A stretch of DNA of 64,000 nucleotides from Allobosea sp. CS1GBMeth4 (GTDB lineage Bacteria > Pseudomonadota > Alphaproteobacteria > Rhizobiales > Beijerinckiaceae), in contig NZ_FYAS01000031.1 in NCBI RefSeq assembly GCF_900185715.1, positions 62,001 through 126,000 of the forward strand, read 5' to 3'. How positions within the stretch are numbered: position 1 is the first letter of the stretch; every line of letters begins with the position of its first letter. Both the position numbers and the translations under genes were made by a program. Shown here one piece after another: positions 59,435 to 62,338 of this stretch. The notes beneath the pieces are model-generated. The model was given only the letters and a program-made list of their open reading frames with translations. It searched no databases and had not been told where the DNA came from.

Positions 59435-60022
59435 TCAGCGGACGAACTTGATCCCGCTGGGCACGGCGAACAGCGAAGCCGGCTGCGGCCCGACGACGAC
59501 ATTGCTGTCGCGGATCACCAGCGTGCCTTTCGAATTGCCCTGCTCGTCCGGGATCGTGTGGCGCGCCTCGATCAGGACGCCGTCCTTGCGGCAGGTCAGC
59601 TGCGAGATCTGCTGCTGCTCGCCGTTGACGTCGGCCGTGATCGTGACGGTGACCGTGCCGTCACCGCGATCCTGGGAGTTGACCTTGATGTCGCGCCGGC
59701 GCTGGTTGGGCGGGGCAGGGAGGCGGATACCCGCCTTGCTCTCGGGATTGAAGACGATGGTGCCGCTGGTGGGGCCCGCGGTGATCTTCACCTCCGGTCC
59801 GGCCTGACCCGGCCCCTCTTCGCGCTTCTTCGCCCCGGAAACATAGATCTTGACGCGCTGAGACCCTTCCGGCCCGGAAACGGTGCGGTCTGCGCTATAG
59901 GAGCCGGGCGCGACCTTGACGCACTCGTTCGCGCTCGCGGCCGGCGCGAGGGCGGATGCGGCGCAGAGCAGGAAGGCGGCGGGGAGAGCGGGACTATGTC
60001 GCGCGGTCATGGCGGTCCTCAT
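59435..60022 (-). CDS. Secreted beta-rich protein, last gene of the Fap-like cluster
   Basis: 195 residues. A signal peptide (about residues 1-31, ending ASA-N) and no membrane helix afterwards. The rest is strand-rich with no Cys apart from two (ANECVKV and QLTCRKDG) that may form a disulfide; the end SLFAVPSGIKFVR recalls LolA/DUF4412-type periplasmic proteins. The start overlaps the stop of the C39 peptidase gene by four bases, so it is translated from the same mRNA. In the Fap system a periplasmic or secreted accessory (FapA or FapE) has no fixed sequence; this protein may play such a part. That is inference. Confidence 0.65.
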   Translation of the reverse strand: MRTAMTARHSPALPAAFLLCAASALAPAASANECVKVAPGSYSADRTVSGPEGSQRVKIYVSGAKKREEGPGQAGPEVKITAGPTSGTIVFNPESKAGIRLPAPPNQRRRDIKVNSQDRGDGTVTVTITADVNGEQQQISQLTCRKDGVLIEARHTIPDEQGNSKGTLVIRDSNVVVGPQPASLFAVPSGIKFVR

Positions 60023-60717
60023 CGCAGGGACGGTGGCAGACGTTCGAAGCCGTTCAGCATGACGTCTCCGACGATACGGGAGACCGAGGTGCCGTCCTTC
60101 ACCGCCGACAGCGCGGATCCCTTGGGGAGGTCGGCCTTCCGCTTCGCGATCGCCAATGCCTTGCCTGTATATTGCGGCCGCAGGTCGGCCCGCGTCATCA
60201 CCGTCTGGCCGACGATCGAATCGGCCATGTAATAGACGTCCGAGGCCGCCCGACGCAGCACGCTGAAGTGCTGGAACTTGCCCTTGTCGAGGTGCAGGAT
60301 CACCGGAGCGGCCAGCTTGGGCAGGTCTTCCAGGCTGATCTCTGCGCCGGCAGCCTCATAACCCAGCTTCTTCGCCGCGAAAATGAGGTCGTCGAAGGAA
60401 ACGCCGTTGCCTTCGCGGTTCTTCCACTGTTCGGCGGTGTAGCGCGACCGGATGAGCTCGAGCACCTCGATCTCGCCGGTCGGCCGGTTCCAGTAGAACG
60501 TCAGGATGGTCGCGACGGAGGCGGCGCCGCAGGTGAAGTCGGCGGTCTGGCCGATGACCCCGTCGAACTTGCGGTCGATGAAGGATTTCGGCCGGCGCAC
60601 CGAACCTTCCTGGGCCGGGGCATCCTCGGCTCGCGCCAGGCCCCCCCCGGCGAGCGACAGGCACAGGGCTGCGCCGGAGCCGATGACATGACGTCGTGTC
60701 GGAACGGCTCGCGGCAT
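60019..60717 (-). CDS. C39-type cysteine peptidase, FapD-like
   Basis: 232 residues with an N-terminal export signal (PTRRHVIGSGAALCLSLAGG, twin-arginine-like). The peptidase core shows the C39 triad: Gln57 and Cys63 in GQTADFTCGAASVATIL, His150 in GKFQHFSVL and Asp166 in YMADSIVG. This arrangement with VLELIRSRY and a single domain is that of FapD, the periplasmic peptidase of the Pseudomonas functional-amyloid system, not of ABC-transporter C39 domains. It lies 12 bases downstream of the barrel gene and overlaps the next gene, so they are co-translated. Confidence 0.82.
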   Translation of the reverse strand: MPRAVPTRRHVIGSGAALCLSLAGGGLARAEDAPAQEGSVRRPKSFIDRKFDGVIGQTADFTCGAASVATILTFYWNRPTGEIEVLELIRSRYTAEQWKNREGNGVSFDDLIFAAKKLGYEAAGAEISLEDLPKLAAPVILHLDKGKFQHFSVLRRAASDVYYMADSIVGQTVMTRADLRPQYTGKALAIAKRKADLPKGSALSAVKDGTSVSRIVGDVMLNGFERLPPSLR

Positions 60718-60729
60718 GGCTGCCGGTCC

Positions 60730-61857
60730 TCAGAAGCGCTTGCGCAGGGAAAGCGAGAAGGCGGCGTCCGGAGCGTCGTCGGTCAGGCCGAGCGTAACCG
60801 AGGGCTCGAACCAGAAATCCTGCCCGACCCGCTGGATCAGCGTGAAGCGGGCGGTCAGGAGCTCGTTGACCGAATTGGCGACGGGCACGCCGCCGACCTT
60901 GAACCGCTCCGAAAGGGCGCCGTTGAACGAGACGCCGAGCGTGGAGCGCTCCGAGAGGGCGAAACCGAAACCCATATTGTAGGTGATGCGGTATCCCGGC
61001 TCGACCTTGATCCCGGCGAAGCTCTTCGGAATGGCGTAATCGGCGCCGACACCGAAGAACAGGATCAGCGGATCCACCGTCTTGAAGAACTGGATCGCGC
61101 CACGCGGCACCCAATGGCCGCTGGACTGGTTCAGGGCCAGCGGGTCGGTCGGGATCACCCCCGCGCGCAGGTTCATCAGATCGTAAGGGGTGTCTCCGGT
61201 CGGGATCGACACACCGAGAGTCAGCGCTGCGCCGGGGTACCACTCGTCCTCCCGCCAGAGATTGGTGGAGGCCTGGAAGGAGATGTCGGCCAGACCGGAT
61301 CGATTGCGGACGATGGTCTGGTTGAAGGCGTTGGTCCGGCGTTGCGACGCGAAATAGGGCACCGACAGCGCCAGCTCGATATCGTTGCTGACGCCGTATC
61401 GGAACGTGGTGGTGGCGCGGAAACTGCGATCGTTCTGGACGAAACTGGTCCCGCGGCCATAGTCGAAGCTCTGCGACATCTCGAACTTGTTGCTCTGCAA
61501 CGTCGGGATGTTGTCGCGGGCCAGGAAGGCTTCCTGTGCGACCGCGCTCTTCTGCTGGCCGGGAGGTTGCTGGGGCGCATCCCGCGGCCCCTGCGCCGTC
61601 TGGCTGTTGGCACCTGCCGCCTGCGGCCGCTCGGCTCCGCGGCGTGCGGGAGCCGGCTGGGCCTTGTCGCGCTTGGTGATCTCGCTCTCGAGCGATTTCA
61701 GGCGCGCTTCGAGTTGCTGAATGCGCCGCTCGAGCAGCTCTTCTTTCGATTGACCAGAAGCCGAAGCGCTGGCGGCCAGCAAAGCCGCCAGCGACACCCC
61801 GGTCACACGCGCCGCATGGCGCGCCATCACAACGGACGTCCTACGCAACAATCCCAA
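60730..61857 (-). CDS. Outer-membrane barrel with N-terminal coiled coil, FapF-like
   Basis: 375 residues. After a signal peptide (about 10-35) comes a short coiled coil (SKEELLERRIQQLEARLKSL, about 37-64), a Pro/Gln/Ala-rich linker to about 110, then a beta-barrel of alternating strands from QSNKFEMSQSFDYGRG onward that ends in KRF, the outer-membrane signal. The RATTTFRYGVSNDIELALSV region matches proteins often labelled 'MetA-pathway of phenol degradation', a group that contains FapF, the trimeric secretion channel for amyloid subunits. It follows the Tyr-rich gene by 81 bases on the same strand. Confidence 0.78.
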   Translation of the reverse strand: MGLLRRTSVVMARHAARVTGVSLAALLAASASASGQSKEELLERRIQQLEARLKSLESEITKRDKAQPAPARRGAERPQAAGANSQTAQGPRDAPQQPPGQQKSAVAQEAFLARDNIPTLQSNKFEMSQSFDYGRGTSFVQNDRSFRATTTFRYGVSNDIELALSVPYFASQRRTNAFNQTIVRNRSGLADISFQASTNLWREDEWYPGAALTLGVSIPTGDTPYDLMNLRAGVIPTDPLALNQSSGHWVPRGAIQFFKTVDPLILFFGVGADYAIPKSFAGIKVEPGYRITYNMGFGFALSERSTLGVSFNGALSERFKVGGVPVANSVNELLTARFTLIQRVGQDFWFEPSVTLGLTDDAPDAAFSLSLRKRF

Positions 61858-61938
61858 TCCCTATCCACCGGGCAGGCCGGAACCGATCGCAACAAGCCGG
61901 ATCAGACGAGGCGGCGATCCAGCCTGTCGGTGGGGTTA

Positions 61939-62256
61939 TCAGGCGTTGTAGTACTGATAGTAGTAGGCGTTGTAAAGGTACTGGGTGGCGTAATAGGAAT
62001 AGTAATACGCCGCATAATAGTAGTTGGCATTCGAATATGCATAACCGTAATAAGCGTAATAATACGCATAGTACGAATAGACATAGCCGTAGTAGCCGTA
62101 GTAATCGGCATAGTAACCCTTGCCGACAACTTTCTTGTTGGCGTCCGGCGTCAGCACCTTGGCGCTGGCGTCGCCGAAGATCTTCGCCGTGTCGGCGGCG
62201 GCCGGAATGGCGCTGAGCGCAAGCGCTGCAGCCGAGGCGAGCAACAGCTTCTTCAT
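61939..62256 (-). CDS. Secreted tyrosine-rich low-complexity protein (putative Fap-like substrate)
   Basis: 105 residues. The signal peptide MKKLLLASAAALALSAIPAA is followed by a cleavage site at about residue 21. After a 25-residue linker (DTAKIFGDASAKVLTPDANK, in part) residues 48-105 contain 32 Tyr in 58 positions, arranged as YY and YYY blocks separated by Ala, Gly, Ser, Asn or Gln, with almost no charge. No such composition occurs in the amyloid repeats of FapB/FapC. ATG 62256 has an AAGGGGA site at good spacing, and a sigma-70-type promoter lies upstream. It is the first gene of the cluster. A surface polymer, adhesin or dityrosine-cross-linked material is possible but unproven. Confidence 0.82.
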   Translation of the reverse strand: MKKLLLASAAALALSAIPAAADTAKIFGDASAKVLTPDANKKVVGKGYYADYYGYYGYVYSYYAYYYAYYGYAYSNANYYYAAYYYSYYATQYLYNAYYYQYYNA

Positions 62257-62309
62257 GAGAAATCCCCTTGATGTCGCGGCAGGCGAGAATAAGCCCAACT
62301 TGCGTTTAT

Positions 62310-62338
62310 GGAATACGCCCGTGACGTTGCGGCGTCAA
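62310..62338 (-). promoter_or_regulatory. Sigma-70-type promoter of the tyrosine-rich gene
   Basis: On the minus strand TTGACG (plus 62333-62338) and TATTCC (plus 62310-62315) are 17 bases apart, placing the start of transcription at about 62303 and a leader of about 46 bases. The -35 is part of a perfect TGACG-N6-CGTCA dyad (62322-62337) that could also bind a regulator. Confidence 0.65.

What the first reader, a model, noticed from the sequence alone, without database searches (positions are those of the whole stretch)
59435..62338. Fap-like secretion cluster with a tyrosine-rich putative substrate
Seen: one minus-strand unit with a sigma-70-like promoter encodes a secreted 105-aa protein (32 Tyr in its last 58 residues), a coiled-coil plus beta-barrel outer-membrane protein ending in Phe, an exported C39 peptidase with Cys63/His150/Asp166, and a secreted beta-rich protein; the last two genes overlap. 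Known: FapF (coiled coil plus barrel) and FapD (C39 peptidase) are the conserved export parts of Pseudomonas functional amyloid. Inference: the Tyr-rich protein is the exported substrate of a distinct Fap-like system, possibly giving an amyloid-like or cross-linked surface layer. The substrate is unlike FapB/FapC, so this may be a new class.
Basis: partly seen in the sequence, partly recalled or inferred. Interest (0 to 1): 0.92.

Follow-up and report, generated by a model that had tools for sequence, protein, structure and literature searches.

The report
Tyrosine-rich protein with Fap-type exporter
A soil bacterium (Bosea) carries a small gene set that looks like the export machine of a known biofilm fibre, but its apparent cargo is a tiny protein that is more than half tyrosine, which would be an unusual extracellular material if it is exported as predicted.

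Summary
A minus-strand four-gene unit (59435-62256) encodes a Sec-signalled 105-aa protein with 32 Tyr in its last 58 residues, a FapF homologue, a stand-alone exported FapD-type C39 peptidase, and an orphan beta-rich protein. The block is in 4 of 67 genomes of the genus (Bosea), at a different site in the window genome than in the other three, each time with the Tyr-rich gene. The trio Tyr-rich/barrel/C39 recurs in the same order in a second family (G482), without the fourth gene. Between signal peptide and Tyr domain lies a conserved L[ST]x6VxGK-G stretch resembling the C39 leader LSx2ELx2IxGG; related leaders stand beside other FapD-type peptidases, including at the FapE position of Pseudomonas fap operons. 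Inferred: Sec export, C39 maturation near G-K-G, release through the FapF-like channel, Tyr-rich extracellular polymer. It works like Fap but is not a Fap system: no FapA/B/C/E homologue in the window, and scores far below equivalog cut-offs. The closest published minimal system is the Neisseria NapP/NapF island (2025). New variant of a known kind.

The parts
61939..62256 (-). Tyr-rich putative substrate, 105 aa (32 Tyr in residues 48-105)
   Evidence: homologues in the other 3 Bosea genomes with the block and in G482
62194..62256 (-). Sec signal peptide of the Tyr-rich protein (residues 1-21, MKKLLLASAAALALSAIPAAA)
   Evidence: read from sequence; K-rich start, hydrophobic core, A-A-A before D22
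62116..62193 (-). predicted C39-type leader (residues 22-47), ...KVLTPDANKKVVGK-G
   Evidence: L, S/T, V, G-K-G shared with G482 and with orphan proteins of G171 and G200
61942..62115 (-). predicted mature Tyr-rich domain (residues 48-105)
61858..61938 (-). 81-nt spacer with a conserved imperfect inverted repeat (CCACCGACAGGC ... GCCTGCCCGGTGG); folding z-scores from -0.4 to -2.5 in four Bosea copies, weak
60730..61857 (-). FapF-like outer-membrane protein: signal, short coiled coil, barrel with PTG motif, C-terminal Phe; TTG start (the ATG at 61827 is not conserved)
60019..60717 (-). exported stand-alone C39 peptidase, FapD type, C63/H150/D166
59435..60022 (-). secreted beta-rich protein of unknown family; conserved in the four Bosea copies, no similar ORF in the 18 kb around the G482 trio
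62322..62337 (.). inverted repeat TGACG-N6-CGTCA, candidate operator, conserved upstream of the Tyr gene in all four Bosea copies

Best explanation
A two-stage export system for a Tyr-rich structural protein. The 105-aa pro-protein goes through Sec and loses its signal peptide. In the periplasm the C39 peptidase recognises the conserved leader (L[ST]x6VxGK-G) and cuts at or beside G-K-G, freeing a 58-residue, almost uncharged peptide that is 55% Tyr. A FapF-type channel (trimeric in FapF; not tested here) carries it across the outer membrane, where it assembles into a surface or matrix polymer. Shown by computation: homology of both machine parts, their own lineage, repeated co-occurrence with a Tyr-rich gene, and the conserved leader. 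Inferred: cleavage, export route, assembly. Speculative: amyloid order, dityrosine or DOPA cross-links.
For: FapF and FapD profile hits; solved FapF matched over the barrel; FapF and FapD of four Pseudomonas-type fap loci hit the window's barrel and C39. Of FapF-type loci outside Bosea, 23 of 24 and 14 of 17 fetched later (the 3 misses had FapF E of 2e-4 to 6e-4) hold a C39 ORF within about 6 kb. Same four-gene block in 4 of 67 Bosea genomes, at another locus in the window genome than in the other three, with similarity ending at 59435 and about 62348: it travels as a unit. Trio in the same order in G482, another family: barrel 35% and C39 43% identical, Tyr-rich protein with leader LSHAQAAQVTGK-G and C-terminal FYSAYYYRYYS against LYNAYYYQYYNA. 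Trio C39s form one clade (100/98) apart from 45 other FapD-type and 18 ABC-transporter C39s. L[ST]x6[VI]xG[GK] after a signal-like stretch hit 3 of 358 distinct predicted genes, all three trio substrates (pattern written after seeing them, and the gene caller missed the window's own copy and the orphans). FapE-position proteins of fap operons carry LKDAEMA[ED]LRGR, VPEHELAEMRGR and, as far as printed, LKDQELAQL (4 of 4 loci). R/T/H-G leaders: 18 of 55 signal-like genes within 1.5 kb of a FapD-type C39 (17 of 37 loci) against 1 of 83 others; two broader forms 17 of 55 against 7 of 83, and 15 of 55 against 10 of 83. FapD is periplasmic and its Cys is needed for FapC export (PMC5557850, passages).
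Against: No experiment. A weight matrix built from leaders of other FapD-type clusters scores the Bosea leader -3.7, below the best 45 of 195 signal-like genes: it lacks E-8 and L-7 and has K for the last G. Two Bosea genomes (G171, G200) carry an orphan protein with the same signal-plus-leader and a Tyr-free tail but no barrel match and no FapD-model match; G171 has no C39 match at all, so the leader is not tied to the machine. Rare and patchy: 4 of 67 Bosea, 1 of 30 in G482's family. The copy outside Bosea was found by searching with the leader itself. In loci fetched as a later test the leader pattern hit only 2 of 8.
Confidence: 0.7

Rival explanations
1. The Tyr-rich protein is a bacteriocin-like or autolysis peptide, matured and exported as proposed for the Neisseria nap island, and the fourth gene is an immunity or accessory factor.
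For: Same parts list: small GG-motif peptides, stand-alone C39 (NapP), FapF homologue (NapF), horizontally acquired island (PMC11798529, abstract and passages). The Bosea block moves as a unit.
Against: Naps are described as cationic; the window's mature peptide has no Lys, Arg or His and one Asp, though G482's has five K/R. The fourth gene differs in G482.
Confidence: 0.14
2. A true functional-amyloid machine whose main fibre subunit is encoded elsewhere; the Tyr-rich protein is an accessory such as a FapE-like activator or nucleator.
For: In Fap the FapE-position protein carries the C39-type leader; FapE was the only Fap protein with complete N-terminal processing (PMC5557850 passages).
Against: FapA, B, C and E of four fap loci have no homologue among 604 window ORFs, and the trio stands alone in two families. 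The rest of the genome was not searched for FapB/C.
Confidence: 0.1
3. The barrel is a COG4313/Phenol_MetA_deg-type uptake channel and the C39 and Tyr-rich genes are chance neighbours.
For: The best Pfam hit is Phenol_MetA_deg (E 3e-5); FapF and the uptake channel Pput2725 are structurally similar (PMC6173800 section 8).
Against: Trio order kept between two families; FapF is the best NCBIfam model; N-terminal coiled coil. PMC6173800 says C39 peptidases have not been reported with COG4313 pores.
Confidence: 0.06

Closest known systems
Fap (functional amyloid of Pseudomonas) FapF/FapD export pair
   Same: Sec-exported C39 peptidase plus coiled-coil barrel with PTG motif and a GLTDDAPD-like last strand; substrate with Sec signal
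   Different: No FapA, B, C or E homologue in the window; one 58-residue Tyr-rich cargo; 57.6 and 69.6 bits against equivalog cut-offs of 700 and 330; own C39 clade
nap island of Neisseria (NapP, NapF, NapA-C)
   Same: Minimal horizontally acquired island: small GG-motif peptides, C39 peptidase, FapF homologue (PMC11798529, abstract and passages)
   Different: Nap peptides are cationic and promote autolysis; the Bosea cargo is Tyr-rich and uncharged, with GK-G. NapP/NapF were not fetched or compared here
Fil putative pilus system (FilB, FilC)
   Same: FilB (C39) and FilC (barrel) profiles also match, E 5e-12 and 1e-8
   Different: Weaker than FapD/FapF and far below cut-offs; no other Fil model matched the four proteins
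Double-glycine leader peptides with C39 ABC transporters
   Same: Leader LSx2ELx2IxGG (quoted in PMC3897388) resembles LSHAQAAQVTGK and LTPDANKKVVGK
   Different: Here the leader follows a Sec signal and the C39 has no ABC transporter; the C39s are in a separate clade

Membership tests
Fap system (fapABCDEF) | FapF-type channel | tested here: inconclusive
   Homologous (E 9e-16; E about 1e-10) but 57.6 bits against equivalog cut-off 700
Fap system (fapABCDEF) | FapD-type periplasmic C39 with Cys/His/Asp | tested here: inconclusive
   E 2e-19 and triad present, but 69.6 bits against cut-off 330 and a separate clade
Fap system (fapABCDEF) | FapB/FapC repeat subunits in the operon | tested here: not met
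   Genes at the fapA-C positions of four fap loci (as far as my gene caller found them) hit no window ORF at E up to 0.01; no Fap match of the Tyr-rich or fourth protein in Pfam or NCBIfam at E up to 1 (I did not check that those libraries hold FapB/C models)
Fap system (fapABCDEF) | FapE in the operon | tested here: not met
   FapE-position proteins of four fap loci hit no window ORF; the fourth gene has no xDxELxxxRG[RGK] leader by eye
Fap system (fapABCDEF) | Extracellular amyloid fibres | not testable with these tools
   needs bench work
Nap-like minimal C39/FapF island | Exported C39 without ABC transporter plus FapF homologue beside small leader-bearing secreted protein | tested here: met
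Nap-like minimal C39/FapF island | Canonical GG motif in the peptide | tested here: not met
   GK-G instead of GG in all five trio substrates
Nap-like minimal C39/FapF island | Cationic peptide | tested here: not met
   The window's mature peptide has no K, R or H; G482's has five K/R, so this fails for Bosea only. Lysis not testable
C39 peptidase family (PF03412) | Domain above gathering score with catalytic Cys and His | tested here: met
   60.8 bits against 22; C63, H150, D166
COG4313 / Phenol_MetA_deg uptake channels | Uptake of hydrophobic molecules | not testable with these tools
   Pfam Phenol_MetA_deg matched at E 3e-5

The most novel reading that the evidence does not exclude
Fap-type exporters are a general 'Sec first, C39 second' route in Proteobacteria whose cargo carries a tandem leader (signal peptide plus double-glycine-like motif ending G[GRKQ]). 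This identifies FapE-type proteins as FapD substrates. In Hyphomicrobiales the route has been given over to a new extracellular material, a 55%-tyrosine peptide polymer that could be cross-linked through dityrosine or carry charge along stacked rings.
Probability: 0.3. Interest if true: 0.88.

Novelty: new variant of a known kind. Interest (0 to 1): 0.74.

Why it matters
No bacterial secreted protein this rich in tyrosine with a dedicated exporter appeared in the listings of my literature searches (open-access library only, top rows seen). A peptide dominated by one aromatic residue would be a natural model for aromatic peptide materials. The leader comparison also makes an open question testable: the target of FapD was called unclear in 2017, with FapE suspected (PMC5557850), and a motif now predicts the cut site in FapE-position proteins and in this one.

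Tried and rejected

A weight matrix from leaders of other clusters was tried as a test of the Bosea leader and did not support it. A leader search in the order matched 124 of 297 genomes at E up to 0.05, mostly over the signal peptide alone; I opened 7 of the listed matches, of which only G482's showed a leader-bearing secreted protein, and scanned four more regions (L162-L165) only for Tyr-rich ORFs, so those counts are not used. The plasmid collection gave no match to the Tyr-rich protein (the low-complexity filter may hide one) and only remote barrel matches, 11 records, all under 60% identity. sigma-70 promoter: none at the scan's threshold. A terminator or processing hairpin after the Tyr gene is not convincing. 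'A full Fap operon' and 'a chance neighbour of an uptake porin' were considered and set aside for the reasons under the rivals. No other clear copy of the trio was found: C39 profile in 199 genomes of the order, 18 with a match, all but the own one in open frames of 708-1229 aa; barrel profile in 385 genomes of the class, 14 with a match, best after the own one E 3e-17. Two of the 11 loci fetched (L198, L199) were not analysed; they overlap L084 and L079.
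Full report
WHAT IS THERE. Four minus-strand genes lie at 62256-59435: a Tyr-rich secreted protein (105 aa), a barrel protein (375 aa), a C39 peptidase (232 aa) and a secreted beta-rich protein (195 aa). Spacings are 81 nt, 12 nt and a 4-nt overlap, so one transcription unit is likely but not shown. Tyr makes up 32 of the last 58 residues; the next best stretch in the 536 ORFs of at least 58 aa in the window has 8. 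The host genus is taken as Bosea: G011, same genus as the window genome, has the contig length of the Bosea lupini LMG 26383 record that a protein scan returned; G207 likewise matches a record titled Methylobacterium MAG that the genome collection places in the same genus.

THE MACHINE. The barrel matches the FapF model (E 9e-16) and FilC (1e-8); the peptidase matches FapD (2e-19) and FilB (5e-12), all far below the curated equivalog cut-offs. A profile of four Bosea barrels matches solved FapF at about 1e-10, including the PTG loop and the last strand ('GLTDDAPD' against 'GMTDDAPD'). FapF and FapD from four Pseudomonas-type fap loci find the window barrel (E 8e-11 to 2e-15) and C39 (4e-13 to 2e-17) among 604 window ORFs, while the genes at the fapA-C and fapE positions find nothing. 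The barrel's N-terminus has a three-heptad coiled coil, read from the sequence. Of the 48 FapF matches outside the own genome I fetched the surroundings of most: 23 of 24 loci, and 14 of 17, hold a C39 ORF within about 6 kb. In a tree of 69 C39 domains the five trio peptidases form one clade (100/98), apart from 45 other barrel-linked FapD types and 18 ABC-transporter C39s; long branches are present, and a lone C39 from G063 joins the trio on a long branch that the program flags.

THE BLOCK IS A UNIT. The barrel is found in 4 of 67 genomes of the genus, own included, and each has the Tyr-rich gene in front. A search with the Tyr-rich alignment finds full-length copies in the same 4 and leader-only matches in 2 more. 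In the other three the block sits between different genes from those in the window, and DNA similarity to the window (80-82%) runs from about 62348 to 59435, the end of the fourth gene. Across the four, the Tyr-rich gene has 0.51-0.70 synonymous and 0.050-0.061 nonsynonymous differences per site, so the Tyr pattern is kept by selection.

AN INDEPENDENT COPY. Searching 297 genomes of the order with the signal-plus-leader region gave, among much signal-peptide noise, a Tyr-rich protein in G482 of another family. A FapD-type C39 lies 1.7 kb away (E 8e-22), with a FapF-like barrel between them. Barrel 35%, C39 43% identical. The substrate has 19 Tyr in 64 residues after GKG, the leader LSHAQAAQVTGK-G, and a C-terminus FYSAYYYRYYS like LYNAYYYQYYNA. 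Nothing like the fourth Bosea protein is in the 18 kb around it. Only 1 of 30 genomes of that family has the barrel. G482's handle lies in the range handed out, where the FapF model did not report it, so rarity may be partly a matter of sensitivity.

THE LEADER. Between signal peptide and Tyr domain all five trio substrates keep L-[ST]-x6-V-x-G-K-G. The published C39 leader is LSx2ELx2IxGG (quoted in PMC3897388, passages). L[ST]x6[VI]xG[GK] hits 3 of 358 distinct signal-like predicted genes, all trio substrates. I wrote the pattern after seeing them, and my gene caller missed the window's own copy and the orphan proteins, so this is not a census. Proteins beside other FapD-type peptidases carry related leaders: LKDAEMA[ED]LRGR at the FapE position of fap operons, IDPARLAEMRGG, MDDAALSGITGQ and others. 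The form with R/T/H before G is in 18 of 55 signal-like genes within 1.5 kb of a C39 (17 of 37 loci; one, in L110, overlaps the signal peptide) and in 1 of 83 others; two broader forms give 17 of 55 against 7 of 83 and 15 of 55 against 10 of 83. The patterns came from the same loci, so the p-values (1e-7, 8e-4, 0.02) are descriptive. In nine loci fetched and analysed afterwards, eight had a C39; the pattern hit in 2 of 8 (L192, L193), and by eye 3 more (L195-L197, from two genomes of one family) have LSATQMDAVAAGG-like leaders in a small secreted protein next to C39 and barrel; three were negative or unresolved. Results against: the matrix of other leaders does not recognise the Bosea one (-3.7, below the best 45 of 195), and G171 has a leader-bearing orphan protein but no C39 match at all.

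HOW IT MOST LIKELY WORKS. Sec export; periplasmic cut by the C39 at or beside G-K-G; passage through the FapF-type channel; assembly outside. The first two steps rest on the signal, the leader and what is known of FapD (periplasmic, Cys needed, FapE the suspected target: PMC5557850, passages). Export rests on FapF homology. Assembly rests on composition alone: 58 residues, 55% Tyr, no Lys, Arg or His. Amyloid order, dityrosine links or conduction are possible and untested.

COMPARISON AND NOVELTY. Rouse et al. 2018 (PMC6173800, sections 6 and 8 read) already saw fapD/fapF pairs in five further phyla. Poncin et al. 2025 (PMC11798529, abstract and passages) describe a horizontally acquired island with a C39 peptidase, a FapF homologue and small GG peptides, and propose periplasmic cleavage and export. 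The architecture is therefore known. The Tyr-rich cargo with a GK-G leader, its recurrence in two families, and the shared leader across FapD neighbours are what I did not see in the listings of searches (open-access papers only). Hence: new variant of a known kind.

REGULATION. No sigma-70 site reached the scan threshold. A perfect TGACG-N6-CGTCA inverted repeat 66-81 nt upstream of the ATG is invariant in the four Bosea copies; it is not in the G482 locus.

On re-reading I corrected the background count, added the broader pattern forms and the misses, and replaced a recalled absence of FapA-C/E by a direct test.

Noticed in passing
L104:5683-6435(+), L105:3346-4089(-), L107:3269-4006(-), L106:3327-4181(-), fap operons: The protein at the FapE position carries, right after its signal peptide, a double-glycine-like leader (LKDAEMA[ED]LRGR, VPEHELAEMRGR; L106 begins LKDQELAQL, rest not printed) that would fit the missing FapE N-terminus and point to FapE as FapD's target.
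   Followed up: partly
L125:1471-1887 and L126:1468-1884 (Bosea G171, G200): Orphan secreted proteins share the signal-plus-leader of the Tyr-rich protein (ADTAKVFGTAQVKVLSPDQARAVSGKG in G171) but have a Tyr-free Gly/Pro-rich tail; no FapF-like match or FapD-model match in either genome, and G171 lacks any C39 match.
   Followed up: partly
L195:879-3121, L196:661-2885, L197:6983-9254 (two alphaproteobacterial genomes): Another minimal set: 113-aa secreted protein with LSATQMDAVAAGG-like leader, C39, FapF-like barrel; cargo not Tyr-rich.
   Followed up: no
L060, L062, L063, L065, L066 and L061, L064, L067: A C39/FapF-like cluster with a FadL-like porin (label recalled) and, in several, small secreted proteins with TGQ-ending leaders such as MDDAALSGITGQ, distinct from fap; resembles the Fil set.
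   Followed up: partly
L004:564-2070 (G063, same family as Bosea): Stand-alone exported C39 behind a small secreted Gly/Ala-rich ORF, with no barrel recognised by eye in the 3.4 kb held.
   Followed up: no
window 62322-62337: Perfect inverted repeat TGACG-N6-CGTCA, the only one in the window (0.08 expected), invariant upstream of the Tyr gene in four Bosea copies.
   Followed up: partly
plasmid listings H15, H17, H22: Very small plasmids (6-10 kb) of Campylobacter and Acinetobacter carry an annotated C39 family peptidase similar to the query.
   Followed up: no
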